Source: Narthecium ossifragum (taxonomy: Eukaryota; Streptophyta; Magnoliopsida; Dioscoreales; Nartheciaceae). Taken from it: a stretch of 64,000 nucleotides of DNA. The position numbers and the translations under genes were made by a program. Under the pieces are notes generated by a model that worked only from the letters and a program-made list of their open reading frames with translations, was not told where the DNA came from and made no database searches. Positions 6,828-38,456 of this stretch are shown piece after piece. Location of the stretch: assembly GCA_963920575.1 (NCBI GenBank), contig OY986970.1:17878851-17942850 (forward strand). Direction: 5' to 3'. Each line of letters starts with the position of its first letter. Within the stretch, counting starts at the first letter, position 1.

Positions 6828-7300
6828 AGTGCGCCGCCTCCGATCCATCGTCGCAGTGCCTCAACGCCTCCGATCCGTCGTCGCAGCGCCTCAACGCCTC
6901 CGATCCGTCGTCGCAGCGCCTCAACGCCTCCGATTCGTCGTCACAGCGCCTCAACGCCTCAACGCCTCCGATCCGTCGTCGCACCGCCTCATCGCCTCCG
7001 ATCCGTCGTCGCACCGCCTCAACACCTCCGATCCGTCGTCGCACCGCCTCAACACCTCCGATCGCCTCCGATCCGTCGTCGCACCGCCTCAACGCCTCCG
7101 ATCCGTCGTCGCAACGCCTCAACGCCTCTGATCTGTCATCACAGCGCCTCAACTCCTCCGATCCATCGTCGCAACGCCTCAACGCCTCCGATCTGTCGTC
7201 ACAGCGCCTCAACGCCTCCGATCCGTCGTCGCAGCGCCTCAACGCCTCCGATCCGTCGTCGCAGCGCCTCAACGCCTCCGGTCCGTCGTCGTCGGAGGTC
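6828..7300 (+). repeat. 30-bp tandem repeat (10-residue unit), about 15 copies
   Basis: Imperfect direct repeats of about 30 bp around the core GCCTCCGATCCGTCGTCGCA. The + frame translates as NASDPSSQRL repeats. The - strand also stays open (RRCDDGSEAL), as expected from a stop-free repeat unit, so openness is not evidence of a gene. A few units are shortened or frame-shifted (about 6960-7070). Confidence 0.85.
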
Positions 7301-7893: not shown

Positions 7894-8144
7894 AAAGAGG
7901 AAAGAGAAAAAAGAAGTTGGGAGCTCATCGACGGTTAAGACCAGTATAGGAGAGATAGTAGCGACATCATGGAATAATTCTGATGGCTGATCGACAAGAA
8001 TGGCGACGGAAATGGGTGGTCGATTGAGAAAAGAGAAAAGAGAAAAATGAAAAAGAGAAAAGTGAAGTTGAGAGCTCGTCCTCAGTTAAGACCAGTATAG
8101 GAGGGATAATAGGGACACCAGGGAATGATTCTGGTGGTGGATTT
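7894..8144 (+). repeat. Direct duplication of about 100 bp
   Basis: About 7895-7995 and 8045-8145 are diverged copies: both have 'gagagctc', 'ggttaagaccagtatagga', a 'gacacca' step and 'gaatgattctg..ggtgg'-like ends. It sits between the AMT fragment and the A/B tandem block. Confidence 0.65.
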
Positions 8145-9190
8145 ACAAAGAGAATACTGAAATTCATTCATGTATATTAATCAAGAAGAGAAAAGAGGAA
8201 TATGCAATCATTGTATGAGCACATAATACTCTTTGGTAGGTATTCTTTTTTTATAAAGAGAATACTGTAATACATTCATGTATATTAATCAAAAAGAGAA
8301 AAGAGACGATTCAGGCCATTCATGTATATTAATGAAAAAGATAAAAGAGAATACTGTAAAGAGAAAACTGCAAAGAGAAAAGAGCACAATCTAAACCATA
8401 CATGAGCTCTAAATCCTGTTTCAGTATTCTCTTTTTACAAAGAGAATACTGAAATCCATTCATGTATATTCATCAAGAAGATAAAAGGGAAATCTGCAAA
8501 CATTGTATGAGCACATAATGCTCTTTGATAGGTATTTTCTTTTTACAAAGAGAATACTGAAATCCATTCATGTATATTAATCAAGAAGAGAAAATGGGCG
8601 ATTCAGGCCATTTCATGTATATTAATGAAAAAGAGAAAAGAGAAAACGACAAAGAGAAAAGAGCACAATCCAAACCATACATGAGCTCTAAATCTTCTTT
8701 GATAGGTATTCTCTTTTTTACAAAGAGAATACTGAAATCCATTCATGTATAATTAATCAAGAAGAGAAGAAAGAAATCTGCAAACATTGTATGAGAACAT
8801 AATACTCTTTTATAGGTATTCTCTTTTTACAAAGAGAATACTGAAATCCACTTATGTATATGAATCAAGAAGAGAAAAAAGGGAAATATGCAATCATTGT
8901 ATGAGCACATAATACTCTTTGATAGGTATTCTCTTTTTATAAAGAGAATACTGTAATGCATTCATGTATATTAATCAAAGAGAGAAAAGGGATGATTCAG
9001 GCCATTCATGTATATTAATGAAAAAGAGAAAAAAGAATACTGCAAAGAGAATACTGCAAAGAGAAAAGAGCACAATCCAAACCATACATGAGCTCTCAAT
9101 CCTCTTTGATAGGTATTCTCTTTGTAAAAAGAGAATACTGAAAACCATTCATGTATATTAATTAAGAAGAGAAGAGGGAAATCTGCAAAG
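8145..9190. repeat. Mosaic tandem block of two unit types with palindromic joints
   Basis: Units are joined by a palindrome (GTATTCTCTTTTTACAAAGAGAATAC type) seen at about 8155, 8261, 8434, 8548, 8725, 8831, 8941 and 9126. The intervals alternate between about 106-114 bp (type A, with 'gcaaacattgtatgagcacataatactc') and 173-185 bp (type B, with 'gattcaggccattcatg' and 'aaaccatacatgagctc'). The order is about A B A B A A B A. All units share 'cattcatgtatattaat'. Short open frames here are repeat artefacts. Confidence 0.75.
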
Positions 9191-22960: not shown

Positions 22961-22969
22961 TAAGTTTGG

Positions 22970-23100
22970 GTTACAGCTATCCGCATCATAATTTGGACTC
23001 AACACATTATAGTCTATGTTTGAAAATCTCAGTTTTTACTCAACACATCATACAAAATAAATCTGTTTACCTAAACTATTCTCAAAATCTCACACCACAC
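22970..23100 (+). repeat. Left terminal inverted repeat of the MULE
   Basis: Pairs with 30560-30693. The best-kept core is GCTATC-GCA-CATAATTT-GACTCA, then looser matches in 'atctgtttacctaaac' against 'atcttatctaccttaac' and 'tctcacaccacac' against 'catcacaacaccac'. Confidence 0.75.
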
Positions 23101-23812
23101 TAACACCCCCAATCCACCCCAAACAAAACCCAAAATATCTACACTACTTCTCACCCCACTCCAGCCCCTACCTTCTTCCCCCTCTTCTACCGAGACTTCC
23201 TCCCTCCCTCTTCTACCGAACTCTCTCCCTCTCTTCACTCTCCCGAGCATCTCCCTCCACCTTCCCAACGCCCTCTCCCGAACGTTGCCAGCCTCCCTAC
23301 ACCCGCGGCAGAGCCTCGCCGGCGAGCTATCCACGCCTCCGTCGAGTCCGTCGAGTGAGATTTCACAACAAGTGAGTTTTTCATTTCTTGTTGCATGAAA
23401 TGCATTGCCTTTGTATTGTTTTTGCATATATAGCATTGGTTTTGCAGCATTGTTCTCCGAATACGGTTTTTTTCAAGATTTTCAAAATTTTCCAATGGGT
23501 TCCGACCTTTCAGTTTTATACGTATCAATCGGTACAAGACAACCGAATGATTCACTATCATATCGGTACATATTCACCGATATGATAGGATTATTTATCG
23601 GTACGTAGGTACCGATCAATACGCTTTTTGCTGTATGGAAAAGAGCTTGTTCGGTATCAAGGTACCGATATCTATTCTAAACTATCGATAACTTACTACC
23701 GATATGTATGATTTATTACCGGTACTTAGGTACCGTTAATAACGCTTAATTGCCGGTATATGGATACCGAAACGCTCTACTAATCTTTGCATTTCTTTTT
23801 CAAAACAGTTAA
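23101..23812 (+). promoter_or_regulatory. PMD gene leader, first intron and left TATCGGTA cluster
   Basis: 23101-23370 is a C/T-rich leader. A donor (AACAA|GTGAGT, about 23370) and an acceptor (CAAAACAG, ending 23809) define a likely 5'-UTR intron, four bases before the ATG. From 23528 to 23771 this intron holds about 12 copies of the motif ATCGGTAC/TACCGAT or the variant TACCGGTA, in both orientations. Coding exons lack such a cluster. Confidence 0.65.
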
Positions 23813-26270
23813 ATGGTTCGTCCACGGGGAAAAGCACCCGCCGGAGCCTCGTCATCTTTGGTGGCCTCGACATCTTCATCGGCCCGCGGTGACCGGCCGA
23901 CGGCCTCAGCTAGGAGGAGGAGAGCGGTACTAGAGGAGATTCCAGAGGAGATCCCAGAGGGTGCCTTAATGGCTGCTGGCCCTGGTGAAGAGGAAGAGGT
24001 GTCTGACGACGAGTCACCCATCCCTGGTGGGCCTGTTGACCGGTCGGTTTTGACGGAGTTCAAAACACACGTGGCATATCGGATATGGGCTGGAGAGGTA
24101 AAAAAAGGTTGAGTTTTTTTTATATCATGCCGTGTTTATATCAAAGTCTGCTCACTTTTCCCCTTCTTCTTAACGTAGGAGCGTGGCCCACTGAAAATTT
24201 ATGCGCATGGGCTCTCCACTACGAAATGGGACAGCATCGAACGGCAAGACTTTAAGAATGCCGTGGAGGCCACCGGTCTAGCAAATCTGACGGAGTGTTC
24301 TTACAAGACTATCAACAGTGCCCTGGTGTCGGCGTTCATCGAGAGGTGGCATCCGGAGACCAACACGTTCCACCTGCCCTGTGGAGAGATGACGATCACT
24401 TTGGGTGACGTGAGTCGTATACTGGGCATCCCCGTTGCCGGTAGGCCACTTGAAGAGTGCAAGTTGAAAGTCTCCCAGCTGAAAGCGCTTATGAAGGTTA
24501 ATTTGGGAGTCAGTGAATCAGAGGCCGCGAGCCAGTTGGATGGGAGAGGGCTGTCAGTCAGTATGACCTGGCTGAGGAGAGAGTGCACTCTCTGCAAGGT
24601 CGGCCTGAGTGCTCTGTCAAGGCATACAAGTCGGGGTCGAAGGTTCACGTGTCCTGCCTTTCTGCTCTCACGGACTTGGATACCGTGCGTGAGTATGCGT
24701 GGGGTGCCGCCGGCCTCGTCTACCTCTATCACATGCTTGGCTCTGCCAGTCGATGGGGGACAAGAGCAATTGGCGGATACTTGACTCTGGTGGAGGTACG
24801 TACTTTTCAAACATCTGCTTTGTGATATAATACCAATAATTGTGACTGACCCATATTTTTTTAATCAATGCAGGCATGGATATATGATCACCTCCCGGTA
24901 ATTATAAAGCCACAGCCCGACCCAGAATACACGGTTGACAAGACGACTGCTCTTGCATGGCTGGATCACAAAGATCCAGGTCAGGATCCGGAAATGGCTC
25001 TGCTTCAATGGCGCGCAGAGATTGATTCCCTGAGTAGACATAAGGTGAGTTGTAATCTTTGTCTGACTCCGAGTTGAATTTTGTAATCTATTTAGTAGTG
25101 ATCAAATATTGATTCCCTTACGGCATGTTTGGTTCGCACAAGGAATGGGAATGGGAATGGGAATGAGATTAGGAATGGGGATGGAATGGGATTGGGATTA
25201 AGAATGGTCATTACCAAGGTGATTTTGTAATATTAGGATTGTGAATGAGAATGAAGCATTGCCATGTTTTGTATACAAACAGAAGCATGGGAATGGAATA
25301 GGAATGAAATATAGATAACTAAAATACCCTCTTTTTTTAACATAGAGAGATCCGATTAAGGGTAGATTAGTAATTTAATTTTTTAACCACCATTAACCGC
25401 CATTTCGTCGGGAATGGAATGAGGCATTCCGGGGTATTAGATGGGATTGCCTCATTCCCAACTTGTCAGGAATGGAGCATTCCATTCCCAACTTTAATGT
25501 CTAACTAAACAACGGAATGGGATTTGACCAAGGATTTGACCATTCCATTCCCGGCGGTTATGTCCAACCAAACATGCCGTTAGTATGAGTATGGTTGCAG
25601 GTTGTGTGGGACCCATACGTCAGACATAGAGGAGGCCCCTTCCCTCGTGACGATATTAGCTTTTTCCTCGGCACCATAAGCAGCGGGGAGCACGTCGAGC
25701 CGTACCATCCTGATCGGGTGCTTCGGCAATTCGGGATCATACAGACCATTCCCGCCGCCCCACTAAGGCCAACCCACTTCCACATGGGAGCCAAGGAGAC
25801 TGCCCGGGGGTACAAGAGGGCCTTCCACTACGAGCCGCGGTTCTGGGCTGATTGGCCAAGCCACTGCACTGCTCTATGCCGGACGGGTGAGTATGCTATC
25901 CGTGGGTATGACTGCGTGGATGGGTATTATGACTGGTATCGATCCATATCTCATGTGAAGGTCATAAACCCAGAGCGGAGGACTTTCTAGGCTGAACATG
26001 CAGATGATTATCTGCCGGCGAATGTAACTTTTAGAAATTCTAAATGAAAATGAAATACTAGCGCATAATATTATGTCTAATTTGTTTCGAATTCTTGAAA
26101 TTCAGTATGATCGGATTGTCACGATCATCGACGACACCATGGCGCACATGGATACCCTGACCATTGACGACCACAGGAGTAGGTGGGCGCGGGCTCAAAG
26201 AATAGCCCGAGTCGAGATTGACACGGAGCGCGCCTACGAGAGAAGATCTAGACAACGAACCAGAGAATAG
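23813..26270 (+). pseudogene. Plant mobile domain (PMD, aminotransferase-like) gene carried by the MULE
   Basis: Exons: 23813-24097, 24179-24795, 24874-25044, 25601-26023, 26106-26270; GT-AG introns, about 553 codons. An N-terminal low-complexity acidic region (about residues 1-75) is followed by the PMD. The diagnostic block TNTFHLPCGEMTITLGDVSR and ILGIPVAGRPL lies in exon 2. The second half has YAWGAAGLVYLYHML, VVWDPY and QFGIIQTIP blocks, then a basic C-terminus (ERAYERRSRQRTRE). Two lesions: exon 2 is one base short (617 bp), with the frame changing near 24520-24560; and a stop codon at 25988-25990 is followed by 11 more in-frame sense codons up to the donor. PMD proteins such as Arabidopsis MAIN/MAIL1 act in silencing and genome stability, and PMDs are also known inside transposons. 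A role in the element's expression or transposition is inference. Confidence 0.8.
25121..25579. mobile_element. PIF/Harbinger-type (Tourist-like) MITE, TSD TTA
   Basis: 459 bp with perfect 14-bp terminal inverted repeats CGGCATGTTTGGTT ... AACCAAACATGCCG, flanked by TTA at 25118-25120 and 25580-25582. The interior has GGAATGGGAATGGGAATG-type repeats common in Tourist-like elements. No coding capacity. It lies in intron 3 of the PMD gene and is bounded by intact splice sites (25045 donor, 25600 acceptor). Confidence 0.88.
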
Positions 26271-27119
26271 CATGTATATTGATCGTCATGAATGTGTTTC
26301 CAATGTATGAACTTAATTGTTTCCAATGTATGGACGTGTTTCCAATGTATAGACGTGTTTCCAATGCATTGCAATTTCTACAGGATTGGTAGAATTAAAC
26401 CTCCCTCCCAAATACTCTGTTTTTTTTATCAGGTCTGGTTCTATCGGTACCCAAGTACCGATAACAACCCAAACATTATCGGTACCATACTACGGAATAT
26501 ATACCGCACCTTATCGGTACTTAAATACCGTTACAAAGCCAGTCAAGTAAAACAAACACTGTTACGGTACTCACTCTTCCGAACAGTGAAGCATTATATC
26601 GGTACTTTAATACCGATAGAACATGGAATCAAAGACAGAAGTAAGCTGCGTTTTATCGGTAGTATAGTACCGATAAAATGCTTCACTGTTCGGAAGAGTG
26701 AGTACCGATACAAAGCCAATCAAGTAAAACAAACACTGTCTCGGTACTCACTCTTCCGAACAGTGAAGCATTTTATCGGTACCTTAATACCGATAGAACA
26801 TGGAATCAAAGGCATAAGTAAGCTGCGTTTTATCGGTAGTATCGTACCGATAAAATGCTTCACTGTTCGGAAGAGTGAGTACCGAAACAGTGTTTGTTTT
26901 ACTTGATTGGCTTTGTATCAGTCTTCAATTACCGATATTTTCGGGTATACATCCGGTAGTATGGTACCGATATTTGTCTGGGTTATTATCGGTACTTTGG
27001 TACCGATAGAAGCATACCTGATAAAAAACAGTTTTTGAAGCAACCCTTTGCAACACAATGTTTACAACCATACAAGATATTAATATTCAAAATCATACAA
27101 GATATTAATACCCAAATTT
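26271..27119. repeat. Intergenic TATCGGTA/TACCGATA cluster with nested inverted repeats
   Basis: Lies between the convergent 3' ends of the two MULE genes. 26291-26372 holds about four copies of a 'gtttccaatgtatggac' repeat. From 26438 to 27010 there are roughly 20-25 TATCGGTA or TACCGATA half-sites, mostly as facing pairs 4-7 bp apart (TATCGGTACTTTAATACCGATA-like). 26534-26915 also holds a unit of about 180 bp, present twice in direct orientation and partly a third time inverted (arms containing CACTCTTCCGAACAGTGAAG and its complement). An open frame here (26292-26906 +) is a repeat artefact. Confidence 0.8.
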
Positions 27120-30100
27120 TCATTCAAGATCTATAGTGTCCGTTGTAGCAACATCTGATGACACGATTAACCCAAATTTTTCTATCTCATCGTATAGGAA
27201 TCCCATCCAATGGCACAAGCATCTCGATATCGAGCCCAGCTGCTGACTACTGGTGGCATTGGACATCCAGGCTGCATGTGTAGTTGAACAAAGTGATTTC
27301 CGTTTACGAACCCGATCGCGATGATCCTCCGTGCCGGTTTCGGGGGCGCTGCTGTCCAAAGTGGCAATAAGGTCACGCATTGTCTTCTGGAGATGTGAAG
27401 TAGGACAACCGAGTATCGTGATGCAATAAGATAACCCATGTCCAGCATGGTCATCTATCGATCGGGTAGAGTGTTGTATTCGAGAAACGACAATGAGTAC
27501 ATAAACTCGTGAACACGCTTTTCATTCCCATACAACTTAAGGTAGCCCTCGAAGTGATCACGCAACTCATTGATAAGATCGTTCCTCACTTGGGACCAGT
27601 TGTCCTCGCCGTAGCCCAATAGCCCGGCTATCGCTCTAAAGCCGCAGTTACCATCTGATGCAACATCCTTAACATGCTTAATATATTTTGTCAACCCTTC
27701 TGGAAACTGGCCAAGATAGCCCAGCGGATCGGCTGTCCGAGCCCTTATCACTCTCTCCTTTGGGCGCTTTTTTTTGACTATATCAGGCTTCTCTGGTTTC
27801 ATGCAAGATATGGGACTAACATGTAGAGGTGTTTCTTCTAGTGAGTTACTGTCCTTGAACGAAGGTGCATACTCAAAGGCGGATGGGTCGCGTTATGTTG
27901 AGAGCATCAACTTCTTCTCCTTAGCGCTTGGTCGACCGCGGGTCCTCAACTTCACCTCTGGCTCAAGAACATAACTAGACTGCGGTTCTGCTAGCTCATA
28001 CATTTTCCTCAGCATATGCATTCTTCCTGCCTCATTCTGAGCTAGAAATGCGTTTTCCAAGCGTTCTAGCGCATTTTGGCACTTAAGTTTTGGGATTTCA
28101 TTGGCTGGTATAGCCGACAAGTCAAGCTTCCGCCAATGGTGATGTATGCATGCTAGGGGTATGGGGCAGCAATGAAGCTTGTGGTTGGCGATCTCATGGG
28201 CACATGGCAAGCCATGTGTGCGTCGGACTGTACAACCACATGCGGACTTATCCGCACCGATCTCATTGGCTCTCTCTGATTCTTTTTGAACTATTAAAAG
28301 TGCACTCTTTGAAATGAAGCATCGCAGCTCTTTGAAGATGGTTGGCTTGAAGCTGTGATGCACAATGTATTTGCTCTTCTCGAAGGAGGCTTTGATCTCA
28401 CAGTGTTGCAGCTCAAGCAGGGAGTGAATAGTAGCCCACGATGTGTCAAAACTGCAGCTGGATGCCCCAAGATGCCACTTTAACTTGGCATGTGCACTCT
28501 CTACCCTATTTGTAGTGTGATTGCCAAAATGCATATATTCGTCAGTCCAAGCACTGACGAACAGTTCTTTGAAGCCATCCAGCCACGATTCCCGAACATA
28601 TTTAGAAGCTGCTGGGTAACCGCAAAAAGATGTCTCTAGTGTCTCCAACTGTTTCTTGTACTCCTCCTCGGTAGATGCAGTTACAACCAATTTCCACATT
28701 GTCATGAACAAGTCGGCTTTATCTGTAGTTTTGAAAATGTGTTTGCAGCTGAGCTCTACGTTCTTTTGGATATGCCATCTACATAGCATGCTTTTGGACT
28801 CCGGAAAGACCGAGCTGATAGCGTTCATCAAAGCCAGTTCTCGGTCTGTCACCACAACGCTTGGCATTGAGCATCCTTCTAGCAATGTCCTTAATATTTT
28901 CAAAGCCCATTTGTACCTGTCCTCCTTCTCACACTCTATGTAGGCAAAAGCTGCGGCGAATGTCATACTCGTCGACGTGACGCCAAGAATCTCTAGCAGT
29001 GGAAGTCGGTATCTATTGGTCTTGTAGGTGCAATCCATAATCAACACCTCGGGAAATGCACGGATTAAATCAATAGACATAGGGTGTGCCCAGAATACGT
29101 CCCTCACAGCGTCTGTGTCTTCTCGAACCGTATGATACTCAACGTATCCAAACTCATTTAGATGCTTCAATAGTTGCTGCATCTCTGATCTCCCAGCCTT
29201 TTCAATCACCCTATTCCTTTGGCGTACATTGTAGATAGTCTTCATGGTGGATATGTTTTCAGGATCTTGTTGCTTTATAGTGTTCAGGATTTGCCGTGGC
29301 TTCACTAGGTTTGCTGACATCATAACCACCATATCATTTTATTCAGCAGATAATCTTCCGGCGAACGAGTGACCCTCGAGGTGATCCGCATGGGGGTGAT
29401 TGTGGACTCCGTAAATAACTCTGAGCATCCAATCATCATCAGATACAAGCTTCACACCCTGAAGCTTGAAAGGACATCCACACTTCTTCGTCCCGGAGTC
29501 GACGGATTTTTTCCTTCGATTGGCAAATTTTTTCTTCCCGCTATCATCTTTGTTCATAGTTTTCTGATACTCTCCACTACGCTCACATGCCAAGGTAATC
29601 CTCGGCTTTCTACCACACCCCCCGACCTCTGAATTCTTTGTCACAATCACCAGCCCATTCTGCCTCCCAACTGTCTGTACCCATTGGACAAATGGTTGTC
29701 GACTTTGAAATATCTATAATCAAACAATAAGAATTATGTTAATCAAACAATAAGAATTATGTTAATGAACTTTAGACCTAGTTGTCGTCCGACAAGATAT
29801 AGCGATTAAACAACATACCGTATTGGTCATGAATTCCAGTGTGTAGTCGTGAGTAATTATAGCTCCTACACCGCTCGCATCAGTAGAAACATGCTCCTGA
29901 ATGTAAGCAAAGAGTTAGTAAGGCAGGTAGCCAACACTGTGTTCACATCGGTACCATGGTACCGGTATACGAACGTATTATTCGGTACCATTTTACCGGT
30001 ATATAAAGCTATAGTTTCGGTGGATACGTACCGGTATACATAGCATACTAATCGGTACTATGTTACCGGTACATAAAGCCAAAGTATCGGTGGATACATA

Positions 30101-30251
30101 CCGGTATACATAGCATACTAATCGGTACTATGTTACTATTGATCAAAACGCGATCCGGGAAGGACAAAAAAAATCAAGAGAAGAGGAAATGTACATTTTT
30201 TGAGGGCCTTTTCTCGTCTCCTTCGCTCCAGCATTCGTCTTTTCCATCCAT
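27120..30251 (-). pseudogene. MULE transposase-OTU cysteine protease fusion
   Basis: Exons on -: 30251-30195 (19 codons from ATG), 29896-29819 (26 codons), 29713-27120; splice phases agree. Order: FAR1/WRKY-GCM1-type zinc domain (CGCPF ... VHNHP, about 29340-29650); MULE DDE domain with VLIMDCTYKTNRY (first Asp), VVVTDREL (second Asp) and TTNRVESAHAKLK (Glu); a SWIM zinc finger (CGCTVRRTHGLPCAHEIA, about 28190-28260); then an OTU domain with DGNCGFRAIAG (Cys nucleophile region) and NGNHFVQ (His). Four lesions: in-frame stops at 29339-29341, 27893-27895 and 27455-27457, and a shift near 27185 after which another frame reads to 27120. All three stop-separated parts share one frame and the catalytic residues survive, so the damage is recent. 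Fusions of FAR1-like transposase with OTU are known in plants; what the OTU protease cleaves for the element is unknown. Confidence 0.85.
29897..30194 (-). promoter_or_regulatory. First intron of the transposase-OTU gene with right TATCGGTA cluster
   Basis: Intron between exon 1 (donor GTACAT at 30194) and exon 2 (acceptor CATTCAG at 29897). 29948-30135 carries about 11 half-sites, mostly ATCGGTAC and TACCGGTA, including two near-identical copies of about 80 bp (GTTTCGGTGGATACGTACCGG and GTATCGGTGGATACATACCGG types). It mirrors the position of the left cluster in the PMD first intron. Confidence 0.7.
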
Positions 30252-30693
30252 TTCGACCTAACACACCTTGAATTGACAATGTATAATGGGGAGGGCTTGT
30301 GTGAGTTGAAAACCTAAGGCTTGGAGGAGATGGTTTGGAGTATAATGTGAATGTGTTGGGAAGATAAGAAAGAAGATAGAATATGATGAGGGTAGGGAAG
30401 AACTATCTAGGATGGAGGGGGAGTGAGTAAGTTGAAGACCTAGGGCTTGGAGGAGATGGTTAGGGATTGGAGGAGGTGGTTTGAGGCGGTGAAAATGATG
30501 AAGGGGGAGTAAGGGGAAGATGTGGTGTTGTGATGTATTGAGAAATAATTGTTAAGGTAGATAAGATTTTGTGATGTATTATGTTTTGAAAGGTTATTTT
30601 AGATATTTAATCAATGAGTGTTTTGGATATGAAAATTATGTTAAGTAGATGTGATGCGATGAGTCTAAATTATGGTGCTGATAGCCACACACT
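30252..30693 (-). promoter_or_regulatory. Promoter side and right terminal inverted repeat of the MULE
   Basis: Read on -, a C/T-rich leader precedes the ATG at 30251. The terminal ~130 bp (30560-30693) pair with the left end. Two direct copies of 'aagacctagggcttggaggagatggtt'-like sequence lie at about 30310-30335 and 30434-30460. Confidence 0.6.
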
Positions 30694-30702
30694 TAAGTTT
30701 GA

Positions 30703-31107
30703 CATAAGGAAGTCCTCCCAACATTAGTGATTTTGGACCCGTGAACCAATTCGTGTATAATCAGACAACACTCCACATTCCCCCTTTCGACACCTGAATT
30801 TGCTATTTTCCTCCGAGGAGACTTTAAAAGGGCATTTTTGCTTGATATGCTGCGGTGAAGCTTTGGCGTCCACAACAGTACCCCATAGAACCCATTCAAG
30901 CCCATGTCAAGTGCAAACATGTGCAATACACCATAGCCAAACAAAGCAACTCAAAGATCTGATCCTGTGGAACAGTCTACATTTAATTACTCACGTCTGA
31001 TAAGATAAACTCACAAGCCAAGGTTCGCTACTAAACCATCCTCTACTAGAAACCAAAATCCCCCAGATGCTGGTTAAAATATCCTCCTCTATGTAAAAGA
31101 TCAGGGG
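30703..31107 (-). other. 3' UTR and downstream flank of the CacyBP-like gene
   Basis: Non-coding; the region between the MULE target duplication and the stop codon at 31108-31110. Nothing else seen. Confidence 0.5.
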
Positions 31108-34100
31108 TCAGGCGTCGTAGTTTCTTAGCGGGTCTGCTGTTTTCCCAGACCTTGCGTCGGACCATGCTTTGGCGATTGTTCGCTTCATTTCATCATCACC
31201 CTCTTCGTACATATTCTGCAGAATATGAAAAATAAACTCCGAATAAGATATCTGATGAAGAATACAACATTTGTAAAATGTAAAATAATGGCGCATAAAA
31301 GGAGTCACCTTCATCAGATCCATGATGCCTGCCATTGGATCCTTCTCTTTATCCAAATTTGGCTTCAGCTGCAGTCATAAGAATCACACCATTAAATCAC
31401 TGATGGTAACATCTGGGATGAATAAGCAAGTGCAGGAATTACAGCGGCCAAAAATAGTAAAGCAACATTGTAAAGAAACAGTAGGTCTGCCTGACATATC
31501 AAACAACCAGATTCTTCTTGATTAATTACAACTACTAATTCAGATATTCAGCAAATTTACCAAGACTACTGTAGTCACACTGGAAGAAATCAATATGGCA
31601 CTAACCATTCCATGCAGATCAAAAACATCTACTCTCGTAAGCTATTGCTTTCCATTATCTGAGATGACATATGGTAGAAAAGCTCAGCGGTACAAAACAA
31701 AGAATAAGAGGAAAGCTCTCTATCCAAAAATGCACACACTCGCCCAAGTACAAGAGAGAATTTACATCAAGACTCTTCTTAAGTGGCCTACATCTGCAGA
31801 AGTTGGATAGTGAGAAATGGGTCAACAAGATATGATGAAGAAAATAATGCACGTGTCATGGAGCCTTTGCATGACAACATATGAGAGCAGACAATGGAAA
31901 AGCGAATGCTCAAAAGCACATGAAGAGAAAAAATATCAAATGAATAGAAATGTGAACCATTGGAAGCTTTTTGGAGATTCATATTTCCCCAAATTCTAAC
32001 TTGTGAAGCACTGTTCAATCATTCTCCAAAACTGAAGAAAGATTTGTAACAAAATCCAGACCGTGAGAGATTTACCTTATCATCCTTGAAGTGCAAGTCT
32101 AGCCAATTTCCTTTGGAAGCTTTGAACAGCGTAACTATAACCCTTGTAGGTTTAACCACCACCTTGCATTTCTCAGGCACGATTTCATTGTTCAGTTTTG
32201 GTATGGCACATCGGTAGTTCTTTCCTTGGACATCAGGAATTTTGATGTCCATAGACATTGGCTTGAAAACAGGCTCCATCTTCTCTTGATCCACACCCTC
32301 GAGGGGTATATAAATCTAGACAATAAAGTCATATTCCCATTAGATTAAGACAACCCAATTTACATAAAACTAACATTGTCAAATGCATCAATTCCTGAAT
32401 CAGTAAATAAGAGGCAAATAAACTTTTCTTTTAGATGATGCTTTCCTGAATAAAAGTTAAAATACTGAACTGATCACCATCCAATTGTTTGATAGTCGGA
32501 TTACATTGATACTAAAGGCTTAGATTTTTTCAGAATTTTTTCTTTATGTTCCAACACAATCTGCTACATGAGTCACTAATAAACAAGCAACAGAAGTATG
32601 TGCATCATGTTGTCTTATGTTCCCAACAAAACAAGGCCATATGATGCAATATTTCCTCCACTCAATATTGTCCAAAGGGGATTTCACCTGCTACGGGACG
32701 TTTTTGACCAAATGTTTGAAATGGTAATTTCACCAAAATGAAGAAGTAATAAAGAGCAACTGGTTAAACGTTGAAAGGCTGGTCAGAGAGCACTAATGTA
32801 ATACACAAAAAGAATTTGAAAGCTGCTGAGAAAATCATTCAGAGCATTCCCACACATGACCTGCTGCAAGGCAATTACGAGTACTATAGTCTGCAGGAAT
32901 AACCCCAACCGTCTGTCCAATACCTCCAAAAATTCTGATGATTGTGTTCCCATTAAAGCTACAAGGAATAGAAGTATCATCTTTTAAACAAATCTCGTGA
33001 ATCAAACCAACATATGTTTTGTCTTGCAAGCAACACAAACTCTTTAACTCAGAATTATCAACACCGACTAAAGATATTATTTACACCATCCATGTTCATA
33101 ATAATCTGAAATTGGAACCCCCTGTATCTTATTCCCCGCAGCAGTCAGTATTGAAACTAAGATTGGTATAACACCATTCAATAGTTGCAGCTGCAATTTA
33201 AAGTTTCTACATTGTTTTTTGAGATAATATCAGTCGACTATGAATATCTAAGACACTACCAGGGTAATAAGCACCATAACTGCCTGGAAATTTCTGTTTT
33301 TAAAACTTATGGTTGTATGTACCAGAACAATTGGAGTCCCTTTTTACTTAGGCGATTCCTTAAATTTCTCGCCTTTTGGCCTCATAATCACTCATTTTGA
33401 CCACACATTCCCACTGATAATTTCATTTGTCTATGTGTTACATTCACCAATCCATTATTAGCAACTTTCTATAACCTTATCTGCCACAGTACAAGCACAT
33501 AATAACAACCCACCCTTAACTGAATAAGACATCATCATGCATGCCTACGTTATTCATTTTCTCCTAAGACGGAATCCAATCAAACCTGCCTCACAATTTA
33601 AACCCTACTCCTATCCAGGCAAACAGTCCACATTGTGCTGGATCACCAATCAAAAATCACTTCAGCTCTTAAGTTTCAGAATCAATTCATCTCTGTTTCA
33701 GCATTGATCTAGTGGAAGTTCATCAGATATCCTAATAATTTAATCAAAAAGTACTACAAATAACATAGTTTGTTCCTTATCCTACGGTGAGTAAAGTACA
33801 ATTTCAATATCTCAGAGTAGTGCCATCCATAAGCTGCATTCTTGAAATAAGAGAAATAATGCAAGGACAACTTCACGAGATGGTTAATCCACAACTCAAA
33901 TCACTAATCCGGAGGGAACAAAGTAGTAGCACAAAAGCTCGCGCCAGTAAATCCTCGAACGTAAGACTGTCGTCCTGTTAAACTATCAGACTAATCTTAC
34001 CACACCCAGATTTCTATACCATTTCCAAAAATAAACTGAACAAAAACAGTACAGGAACAAACCTTGATCTTGTCACTATCCTGATCCCAGCTGAACGATC

Positions 34101-34457
34101 CCAGAGTGACATAAATCAGCACGCTGCTGGCAGGGGTGCCAACGGCAGCAGGCGCCTTCTCCAAAGACGGTGGAGCAGCGGAGGCGACCTTCGATAGCTG
34201 CAGAGATGTAAACAATCGGTCAGATGACCCGACCGCCGCGGGATGGGGGAGCGCGCTCGCACACACCCACATACAGAGAAGTTGCGTATAGGGACAGGAG
34301 AAGGGGGTATACGAACGCAAACAACCTTGGAAACGAGGGAACGAATCTCCCCAGAGATGAGCGAGCTAACGCGGGGCCGCTTGGCGATGGACTCGAGATG
34401 GCGGAGCTCTTCAAGGTCGAGCTTGAGCTGCTCCTCCTCCGATGACGATGCCGCCAT
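31108..34457 (-). CDS. Calcyclin-binding protein (CacyBP/SIP)-like CS-SGS protein, 5 exons
   Basis: Exons on -: 34457-34326 (44 codons), 34197-34063 (45), 32315-32076 (80), 31368-31309 (20), 31215-31108 (35 plus stop). All introns are GT-AG, every junction is phase 0, 224 residues in total. The N-terminal helical hairpin (LKLDLEELRHLESIAKRPRV) is like the CacyBP dimerisation/Siah-binding region. A CS (p23-like) domain spans about residues 70-165 (SVLIYVTLGSFSWDQ, YRCAIPKLNNEI, KVVVKPTRVIVTLFK). The C-terminal SGS region contains DPMAGIMDLMK and MKRTIAKAWSDARSGK. The family acts as adaptor/co-chaperone in SCF-type ubiquitin ligase complexes in animals; the plant role is less clear. No lesions. 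The 1.75-kb intron 2 (32316-34062) is the largest and holds no recognised element. Confidence 0.92.
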
Positions 34458-35300
34458 TGACGTCGCCGCTGCTGCTAGCCGGAAATGGCTCGCGTTACCG
34501 GTTGTGCGAGGGTTGCCCTAAGAGGCAGGGAAGGTTCTGGAGACACAGAGAGAGAGGGAGAGATGATAACCGAAGCGGCGAGCGCGGTCAGGAATGTTCC
34601 GGAATTTGGAGGGATTGCGGCTGGTAAACTCACATTGTTTGGGCGGAAGTTAGAGGTGTCAAGCCCAATGGACCTAAAGCTCTTTAGTTGGCCATTAGGC
34701 AAATTCAGCAGTTTATCACCGCATGGGTAATATAATAGGTTTTTGTATATCATCAGCTACATTTTATTAATAATCCGTATTGATTATTTCATCTAGCAAT
34801 TTTATTTATTAATTTTATTTGTAAATCAGTACCTGTCATGAGCTTTCGTTTATACGCGTCAAGTTTGATTGTTACTTGACTGTCTAATCATAGTCAACAT
34901 ATGTCTAAATGATAATAAAAAAACCCTCTCATTATTTATAATATGTTAGACCAAAATAAGTTTTGGTTAATTATATGTTAAATCAAAATAATTTCCCAAC
35001 CGTTTCAGGATTTTTATCCCTCTCCACTCCAAAACATGATCGTCCTGGGGCTCTTCGTGGAACGGCTCATTTCTTTCCCCAGTCGCCATCTCATTCACCG
35101 TGATCCTAGGGTTATCTCCATCTCCCCACTCACCATGATCCTAGGGTTTTCTGTGGTCTACACCGTTCTTCTCCACTCACTCATGTGTCTCCCGCTTTGG
35201 TGGTGGATCTGAAGCTCGATGAGCCAATGAACTTTTCCCTCTCCACGGCGGTGCTGAACCTGGTCGGCAACCAAGGAAGCTGCTGCTATCCCGTGCATCA
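34458..35300 (-). promoter_or_regulatory. 5' flank of the CacyBP-like gene and unassigned intergenic DNA
   Basis: 34458-34760 is GC-rich near the ATG and then unstructured; the presumed promoter on -. 34760-35030 is AT-rich. 35030-35300 holds a short duplicated phrase (GTGATCCTAGGGTT / ATGATCCTAGGGTT) and an open stretch at 35185-35300 of exon-like composition (LDEPMNFSLSTAVLNLVG) that I do not recognise. It is cut by the family A fragment at 35301. Confidence 0.4.
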
Positions 35301-36412: not shown

Positions 36413-38456
36413 GCTATCTCATATTTCTATAAAAGCAACAGTTTGCACTTGAGTGAAATCAAGATCTGCCACTACCTAAGTTCTCTCTCTCCCTCTCTCC
36501 AAAAATGAATTATGGAGCTGAGTCATCACATTTACCATCTTCATCCTCTTCTGATGATGAATTATTTTCTCAATATTTTCAAGAGTGGGAGGAAGAAACA
36601 ACTGAGTGGGCGAAAGAGGATGAAATCTTGGATCATATTTATACCTCCAACAAGGCCAAAATTGCATATCAACTTGAAGATGATGAGCAACCAAGACGCA
36701 GAGGTTTAGTACCTGGTCATGTGGTGATCAACCGCGGGAGGGTCGAAGTTAATACAAGGCTATGGAATGATTACTTCTCTGATAACCCCACATATGGGGA
36801 TAATCTATTTCGTAGAAGGTTTTGAATGCGAAGGAATCTATTCCTCCGTATTGTCACTGCAGTACAAGAGCACGACAACTTCTTCGTTCAAAAGAAAGAT
36901 GGTATTGGTAAGCTTGGATTATCTGCTTTACAAAAAATTACAGCAGCATTTCGTATGTTGGCATATGGAACATCAGCTGATAGTATCGACGAATATATTC
37001 GGATTGGTGAGTCAACTGTAATCTAATGTTTGAAGAGATTTTGCAGGGCAATTGTAGAGGTGTACAAAGATGAATATTTGAGGTATCCCAATGCAAATGA
37101 TGTTGCAAGATTGTTACAGAAAGGCGAAGAACGAGGGTTTCCAGGAATGTTGGGAAGTCTAGATTGCATGCATTGGCAATGGAAGAATTGTTCAACGGCA
37201 TGGGCAGGGCAATATTCAGGGCGTCATGGAGGGCCAACTATTATTCTTGAGGCAGTAGCATCATATGACTTATGGATATGGCATGCATACTTCGGCTTAC
37301 CAGGCTCAAACAATGATATTAATGTACTACAGTCGTCTCATTTGTTCGCCAACTTAACAGAAGGTATTACCCCTCCTGCTCATTAAACAATTCAAGGAAA
37401 AAATTATGACATTGGTTATTATTTAGCCGATGGCATATACCCGAAATGGTCGACACTTGTTCAAACCATTTCTCAGTCACAAGATAAAAAAAAACAATAT
37501 TTCGCAATGATGCAAGAAGCATGCCGGAAAGATGTGGAGCGGGCATTCGGAGTTCTTCAATCAAGATTTGCAATTGTTAAGGGTCCAGCACGTTTCTTGG
37601 ATAAACGTGTGTTACATGATATCATGACTGCTTGTGTTATAATGCATAATATGATTGTCGAAGATGAACGAGATGAAGATGAAAGTGATGTCATTTCTAC
37701 TCCGCCACGTACTCAGCATGCTGATGAGATGGAGGCAAGTGAATCCGACCGATTTCGCCAGTTTCTTAATCGACATAAAAAGATCAAGGACAAAGAAGCA
37801 CATTTTGCACTTCGGAATGCACTGATTGAACATTTATGGGAACGACATGGCAATGAAGAGATGTAACGTTTTTATCTATATTCAATGTTTTCACGTCTTA
37901 ATGCATATTAAATTAAAATTCTCAATGTTTAGTGTGTAAGATTCATCTTCATTTTAGTATTCTGCACAAATAACTTTAGATAATGTAATTACGATTAGAA
38001 TTAATTTTATTAAACACCCACGTACTAAAATATAATTTAAAAACCCAATGATGAAAAAAAACAGTAAAAAAATAATTTATATACAATTAGATAAATAATA
38101 ATTAAAAAGTATTCAATATTAGTCTTGTTTTGTAGGGATCGACAAGAGTTTTCCAATGATATATTATTTATTCTAAATAAATCAGTAATTTTAAAGTTAC
38201 ACAAATTATTGTAATTAAAGTACTTTAGCTATAGGATATGTTAGTAATTTAGAATTAAATGAGAAGAGTAGAAAGGGTAGTTTAGGTATTATAAATGTTA
38301 TTAAATATGATTGCTGCATATATGCAGCTCATACTCACCGGCTGCATATATGCAGCCTTGGGGAAGGAGCTGCATAAATGCAGCTGGATTTGCCGCCCGA
38401 TTGGAGCGGAACCGGGCTACAAATTTGAGTTTTGCAGCCCGGTTGGAGATGCTCTC
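36413..38456 (+). mobile_element. PIF/Harbinger element, left end missing
   Basis: Contains the nuclease ORF (36505-37866) and a right end with the plant Harbinger-type terminus CCGGTTGGAGATGCTCT (about 38440-38456). The matching left end (AGAGCATCTCCAACC) is absent: a family A LTR fragment abuts at 36412. 37867-38280 is AT-rich non-coding. 38310-38390 contains CTGCATATATGCAGC-type palindromes and a second, internal TIR-like copy (GCCCGATTGGAGC). No separate Myb-like ORF1 was found. Confidence 0.7.
36505..37866 (+). pseudogene. Harbinger-type DDE nuclease with three in-frame stop codons
   Basis: A single + frame of 454 codons with stops at 36823-36825, 37024-37026 and 37384-37386 before the natural stop at 37864-37866. 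It resembles plant PIF/Harbinger transposon proteins: acidic N-terminus (SSSSDDELFSQYF), a helix-turn-helix-like DNA-binding block (LGLSALQKITAAFRMLAYG), then the nuclease with LGSLDCMHW (first Asp), LPGSNNDINVL (second Asp) and DVERAFGVLQSRF (Glu). Spacing and identity of the triad look intact. There are no frameshifts, only point stops, so inactivation is fairly recent and by substitution. Leakage of truncated products cannot give the full triad. Confidence 0.85.

What the first reader, a model, noticed from the sequence alone, without database searches (positions are those of the whole stretch)
23528..30135. Three TATCGGTA/TACCGATA clusters confined to non-coding parts of the MULE
Seen: about 12, 20-25 and 11 half-sites at 23528-23771, 26438-27010 and 29948-30135. 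The first and third lie in the first introns of the two genes, the middle one between their 3' ends; exons lack clusters. Known: VANDAL MULEs of Arabidopsis accumulate a short motif in non-coding DNA that their own VANC proteins bind to remove silencing. Inference: a MULE-encoded protein (PMD or transposase) may read TATCGGTA in the same way, as an independent anti-silencing or transposase-recognition system.
Basis: partly seen in the sequence, partly recalled or inferred. Interest (0 to 1): 0.86.

Follow-up and report, generated by a model that had tools for sequence, protein, structure and literature searches.

The report
Paired motif arrays in a MULE
A decayed plant jumping gene carries three regularly spaced arrays of a paired 8-letter DNA word in its non-coding parts and encodes a protein of a family whose predicted fold matches VANC21, the Arabidopsis transposon protein that binds such words to undo silencing, which suggests (but does not prove) a similar self-unsilencing system with a different protein and a different code.

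The parts
22969..30692 (.). MULE element; 9-bp TSD ATAAGTTTG/TTAAGTTTG (1 mismatch)
   Evidence: TIR local alignment and TSD scan
22976..23007 (+). left TIR core, 27 of 32 bp identical to the right one; best matrix score in 22969-23060 is 0.9 of 13.5
30654..30685 (-). right TIR core; best matrix score in 30600-30685 is 4.9 of 13.5, at 30622, outside the core
23527..23772 (.). left array: 7 dyads, pitch 34, 35, 53, 34, 34, 34; in the PMD leader intron
23809..26270 (+). PMD gene, inferred exons about 23809-24097, 24179-24795, 24874-25044, 25601-26023, 26106-26270; broken by a frame break in the second of these and an in-frame stop near the end of the fourth
   Evidence: exon limits read by eye
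26422..27028 (.). middle array inside a ~607-bp palindrome: 14 dyad slots, 17 exact half-sites; contains a 177-bp tandem duplication at 95%
27182..30251 (-). transposase gene (AFT/FAR1 zinc domain, MULE domain; SWIM-like and OTU-like parts read by eye); inferred exons about 30251-30195, 29896-29819, 29713-27182; in-frame stops at 29339, 27893 and 27455 before the terminal one at 27182
29946..30141 (.). right array: 6 dyads, pitch 34, 35, 35, 35, 35 (last half-site degraded, 4 mismatches); in the first intron of the transposase gene

Best explanation
The three clusters are cis arrays for a sequence-specific double-stranded-DNA-binding protein encoded by the element, most likely the PMD protein, which would bind each 22-bp inverted dyad as a dimer or pair of subunits and load along the array. 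By analogy with VANC, loading next to both promoters and in the shared 3' region would keep or make the element free of methylation and transcribed. Shown: the arrays, their geometry, the lack of shared spacers, lack of RNA-type covariation in the outer arrays, lack of motif in the TIRs, and the PMD-VANC21 fold match in models of relatives. In this copy both genes are broken, so the arrays could now be served only in trans by an intact copy, if one exists.
Against: No binding, methylation or expression data. A shared fold does not show shared function; TM-scores are modest (0.38-0.39 by query, 0.54-0.57 by target). The models are of relatives (37-40% identical to the window's PMD), not of the broken window protein, which shows no DUF1985 hit; nor does modelled P0123. 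The lag test ignores that tandem copies are not independent. VANC21 motifs lie in one orientation; these are inverted. Host PMD proteins MAIN and MAIL1 promote silencing (PMC7156037). A 600-bp hairpin between genes would be expected to feed silencing siRNAs. Between duplicated pieces half-sites change less than other bases only at P 0.07 (11/176 v 32/271, four overlapping comparisons pooled), and the largest one alone shows no difference (3/64 v 6/113). High CpG o/e is partly built into a CpG-bearing motif.
Confidence: 0.55

Rival explanations
1. The arrays are binding sites of the transposase (its FAR1/AFT zinc domain), used for transposition or for self-regulation of transcription, as subterminal repeats are used in CACTA and hAT elements (recalled).
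For: The transposase has an AFT/FAR1-type zinc domain (AFT above its cut-off, FAR1 below). The left and right arrays lie almost symmetrically, 558 and 551 bp from the ends.
Against: The TIRs hold no motif; the outer arrays lie in introns away from the ends; the largest array is in the middle between the 3' ends. The fold match to a motif-reading protein is on the PMD side; the transposase was not modelled.
Confidence: 0.2
2. The arrays are intronic and 3' regulatory sites for a host transcription factor.
For: Both outer arrays lie in first introns near the inferred promoters; nothing here identifies the binder.
Against: The word is at about background in the other 56 kb of the window (2 exact sites), and the dense geometry repeats in three unrelated spacer contexts of one element. 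No host factor with this dyad was sought here.
Confidence: 0.12
3. Mechanical tandem and foldback repeats without a reader: the middle palindrome is a nested foldback unit and the others are minisatellites, possibly siRNA sources.
For: The middle cluster is a near-perfect hairpin (MFE -371 v mean -143 kcal/mol in 20 shuffles) with a 177-bp tandem duplication; the right array has a 70-bp tandem unit; a weak 8-bp flanking repeat with 1 mismatch exists in T-rich sequence.
Against: Three clusters share half-sites and spacing but not spacers, which copying alone does not give. Lag 14 recurs in each.
Confidence: 0.08
4. The dyads act as RNA hairpins in introns and 3' UTRs (splicing or 3' processing).
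For: Each full dyad could form an 8-bp stem with a 6-nt loop.
Against: Left and right dyads pair no better than shuffled partners (82.7% v 83.3%) and covariation is below the shuffled mean. The middle dyads were not tested this way.
Confidence: 0.04

Closest known systems
VANDAL21/VANC21 anti-silencing system of Arabidopsis (Hosaka 2017, PMC5735166: passages and sections 8 and 9 seen; Sasaki 2023, PMC10398659: passages seen)
   Same: MULE; second gene encodes a protein of a family whose predicted fold matches VANC21's DNA-bound domain; short words repeated densely in introns and other non-coding DNA, sparse in exons; short degenerate TIRs
   Different: PMD (PF10536) instead of DUF1985; motif is an inverted CpG-containing dyad with 14-bp offset and mostly 34-36-bp pitch, while VANC21's YAGTATTAY (no CpG) is arrayed in one orientation; no third gene like VANB was recognised among the open frames; host is possibly a monocot
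PMD-carrying MULEs (groups MUDR, MULE-Monocots, MUDRAVI2, MDR of the Mutator survey PMC6446971; PMD-C capture in Ikeda 2017 PMC5418596; passages seen)
   Same: MULE transposase with a PMD gene on the opposite strand and a 9-bp TSD; anti-silencing use already proposed in general terms
   Different: No array of candidate target sites was mentioned in the passages seen; Ikeda describes transposase-PMD fusions in grasses and Amborella, here they are separate convergent genes
En/Spm TnpA and its 12-bp subterminal repeats in maize (recalled, not read here)
   Same: Element-encoded protein reading many short sites and counteracting methylation (recalled)
   Different: Sites there are subterminal; here they are in introns and between the 3' ends, and the protein family differs
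Host PMD proteins MAIN/MAIL1 with PP7L (PMC7156037, PMC9899485; passages seen)
   Same: Same PMD domain; a promoter word (DOWN motif) is tied to their targets
   Different: They silence TEs; the DOWN word (CATGCAGTTT in MORC1) is unlike TATCGGTA; direct chromatin contact is stated as unknown

Membership tests
VANDAL/VANC anti-silencing system | MULE with 9-bp target duplication | tested here: met
   MULE domain E 1.2e-25; TSD 8 of 9 bp
VANDAL/VANC anti-silencing system | VANC protein with DUF1985 | tested here: not met
   Three window PMD pieces hit PF10536 only, no DUF1985 at E<=10; 16 of 28 relatives hit DUF1985 weakly, best E 5.5e-4
VANDAL/VANC anti-silencing system | protein with the fold of the VANC21 DNA-bound domain | tested here: met
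VANDAL/VANC anti-silencing system | short motif dense in non-coding parts, sparse in exons | tested here: met
VANDAL/VANC anti-silencing system | motifs arrayed in the same orientation (VANC21) | tested here: not met
   Inverted dyads with 14-bp offset v PMC5735166 section 8
VANDAL/VANC anti-silencing system | protein binds the motif and removes DNA methylation | not testable with these tools
   needs binding and methylome data
VANDAL/VANC anti-silencing system | motif recurs in sister copies of the family | not tested
   own-genome search did not complete (11 calls); no loci in viral or prokaryote contigs
PMD-carrying MULE | MULE transposase with PMD gene in antisense | tested here: met
   PF10551 and PF10536 on opposite strands inside one TIR-bounded unit
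PMD-carrying MULE | falls in one of the named MULE clades (MUDR, MULE-Monocots etc.) | not tested
   no tree against clade references was made; top-ranked relative 52% identical

The most novel reading that the evidence does not exclude
PMD and VANC (DUF1985) are one family of sequence-specific DNA-reading proteins. MULEs across flowering plants would each pair such a protein with its own private spaced code in non-coding DNA, this one written in inverted CpG dyads whose methylation state could itself gate binding; host MAIN/MAIL1 silencing factors would be readers of the same fold turned to the host's use.
Probability: 0.35. Interest if true: 0.9.

Novelty: new variant of a known kind. Interest (0 to 1): 0.78.

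Why it matters
[quoted passage not shown] A concrete candidate DNA code beside a PMD gene, together with a fold match to a protein solved on its target DNA, makes that question directly testable by gel shift or DAP-seq. If right, sequence-specific anti-silencing is not peculiar to VANDAL-type elements but a wider strategy of plant Mutator-like elements, and it supplies further sequence-addressed proteins for epigenome editing.

Tried and rejected
RNA-hairpin reading of the dyads: disfavoured for the left and right arrays; middle dyads left out because they lie in one large palindrome. Rfam: no match at gathering scores. Relatives by DNA: no encoding locus for the transposase in viral contigs; 13 pattern matches but no confirmed relative in genome contigs. 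PDB by sequence: PMD profiles find no PMD or VANC chain (none at E<=10, one chain, a TGF-beta receptor, at E 0.33). OTU domain: sub-threshold in the window (E 0.046 and 0.087), and no OTU or otubain hit at E<=0.01 in the 10 transposase relatives scanned of 120 listed, though UniRef names two of those ten OTU domain-containing. Selection inside duplicated pieces: weak, P 0.07, pooling four of six comparisons made (D2, I1, I5, D3; I2 3/40 v 5/61 and I4 2/32 v 4/31 not pooled), which overlap in sequence. Foldback insertion of the middle array: only a weak T-rich 8-bp flanking repeat, undecided. Motif uniqueness by 8-mer ranking: not supported, 9th of 157. Host identity: a neighbouring CacyBP gene falls among monocots with weak support (78/87 and 81/95, no starred set holds it, 37 named rows that I picked from the 120 listed of 489), while its single most identical row is a eudicot (Diospyros, 80%); the top-scoring hit, Musa balbisiana, was inflated by a duplicated domain. 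Papers: no held paper has both VANC21 and crystal structure from 2023 on, and only Hosaka 2017 holds two of DUF1985, plant mobile domain and VANC, so I found no printed PMD-VANC link in that library; subscription papers and preprints are not covered, and two relevant papers (Fu 2013, Sasaki 2022) are not held.

Full report
What was checked. The window has 43.7% GC and carries plant genes and plant transposons, so I take it as plant nuclear DNA. TATCGGTA occurs 23 times on both strands where 100 shuffles give 1.17 on average and at most 5. Twenty-one lie in two of the three reported clusters (4 left, 17 middle); the right cluster holds variants with at least one mismatch. Matrices trained on any one cluster recover the other two at 37-55 hits per kb against 0.73-1.02 per kb elsewhere. 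This is real and, in this window, confined to one element, though eight other 8-mers (one of them, ATCGGTAC, an overlapping form of the same word) are more over-represented in the window as a whole, GATCGATC above all.

The element. A local alignment of the two ends gives a TIR core of 27 of 32 identical bases (22976-23007 and 30654-30685), flanked by a 9-bp duplication with one mismatch, so the element spans about 22969-30692. On the + strand lies a PMD gene (PF10536; pieces with E 1.5e-20, 7.5e-10 and 4.6e-9), on the - strand a transposase with an AFT/FAR1-type zinc domain (AFT above its cut-off, FAR1 below) and a MULE domain (E 1.2e-25). Its C-terminal part has sub-threshold OTU-type matches, but 10 relatives scanned gave none; the SWIM-like Cys/His pattern and the OTU-like Cys and His were read by eye. 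Exon limits were read from splice signals and frame continuity and the transposase ends also from alignment to relatives. Both genes are broken: three in-frame stops before the terminal one in the transposase, and a frame break plus an in-frame stop in the PMD gene. The top-ranked relatives are distant: 52% identity over 98% for the transposase (best 120 of 839 listed) and 40% over 77% for the PMD (31 found).

The geometry. The half-sites form inverted dyads, TATCGGTA-N6-TACCGATA, with starts 14 bp apart: 7 left, 14 middle, 6 right. I assigned the slots by this register; 46 of 54 slots hold a half-site with at most 2 mismatches (13, 22 and 11), and four middle slots have 6. Without forcing a register, lag 14 is the commonest short lag in the middle and right clusters and ties with lag 34 in the left one (6, 8 and 5 pairs); uniform placement of as many sites reaches that count at any lag in 1 of 5,000 trials for the left cluster and in none for the other two. 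That null ignores the tandem copying seen. Of 24 dyad-to-dyad steps 18 are 34-36 bp: 5 of 6 left, 8 of 13 middle, 5 of 5 right. Between clusters the half-sites are 72-76% identical, outer spacers 24-30% and inner spacers 32-34%, against 27.5% expected from outer-spacer composition (using 5 of the 14 middle dyads). So what is shared is the word and its spacing, not a copied unit. The best-kept letters are in the CGGT core; 47 of 54 slots keep the CpG in place, and of the seven losses one is a CpA product and four are the TTCGGAAG form. CpG o/e in the arrays is 2.07, 1.40 and 1.80 against 0.30-1.05 in the seven other stretches measured; part of this is the motif itself.

DNA, not RNA. If the dyads worked as RNA stems, changes in one arm should be matched in the other. 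For the 13 left and right dyads they are not: 82.7% of cells pair against 83.3% in shuffles and the covariation score is 0.107 against 0.141. The middle cluster is different. It sits in a ~607-bp palindrome with an internal 177-bp tandem duplication, and folds at -371 kcal/mol against a mean of -143 for 20 shuffles. If transcribed it would be a strong source of double-stranded RNA, which cuts against a purely protective role for that part.

Position. The left array starts 558 bp from the left end and the right array ends 551 bp from the right end; the middle array starts 172 bp after the PMD stop. The TIRs have no motif: best matrix scores near the two ends are 0.9 and 4.9 of 13.5. This argues against a simple transposase end-recognition role, although it does not exclude a regulatory role of the transposase.

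Comparison. Hosaka 2017 (passages and sections 8 and 9 seen) shows that VANC21 binds YAGTATTAY, dense in introns and other non-coding DNA of VANDAL21, in the same orientation and often in tandem repeats; VANC6 uses AGTTGTCC/AGTTGTAC. Here the word is a CpG-bearing inverted dyad with regular spacing and the protein is a PMD. The Mutator survey PMC6446971 (passages) lists PMD, often in antisense, in several MULE groups, so the gene pair itself is known. Ikeda 2017 (PMC5418596, passages) already speculated that captured PMDs serve anti-silencing, and a 2021 review repeats it (PMC8616336, passages). In my ten paper searches and the passages read I met no target array beside a PMD gene and no PMD-VANC21 fold link. 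The depositors of 9LNJ may well have noticed the latter; I found no held paper on that structure.

Verdict. The VANC-like reading is the best supported mechanism at about 0.55; that the arrays are sites for some sequence-specific DNA-binding protein I hold at about 0.85. The PMD as reader, and anti-silencing as the result, are inferences. The element should be filed as a PMD-carrying MULE with a VANC-like target code, not as a VANDAL member.

Noticed in passing
window, 10 of 32 two-kb bins: GATCGATC occurs 56 times against 1.18 expected, including in several short tandem arrays outside the element (arrays).
   Followed up: no
26422-27028: The middle cluster is a ~607-bp near-perfect palindrome between two convergent genes, with nested inverted copies and a 177-bp tandem duplication; a potential dsRNA/siRNA source.
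   Followed up: partly
6835-7291 and 8142-9189: A 30-bp x 14.6 tandem array (CGCCTCCGATCCGTCGTCGCAGCGCCTCAA) and arrays with periods of 110 to 394 bp, outside the element.
   Followed up: no
25100-25590: An insertion-like stretch rich in GGAATG/CATTCC inside a PMD intron, possibly a small nested element.
   Followed up: no
about 31100-34520, - strand: A calcyclin-binding-protein-like host gene next to the element; its tree places the host weakly among monocots.
   Followed up: partly
36457-37866: Open frames that look like a PIF/Harbinger-type transposase (by eye, not searched).
   Followed up: no
P0025/P0145 and P0109/P0142: Transposase and PMD relatives from Rhododendron vialii and from Camellia sinensis list the same longest-contig length, hinting that the pair sits on one contig in other plants.
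   Followed up: no
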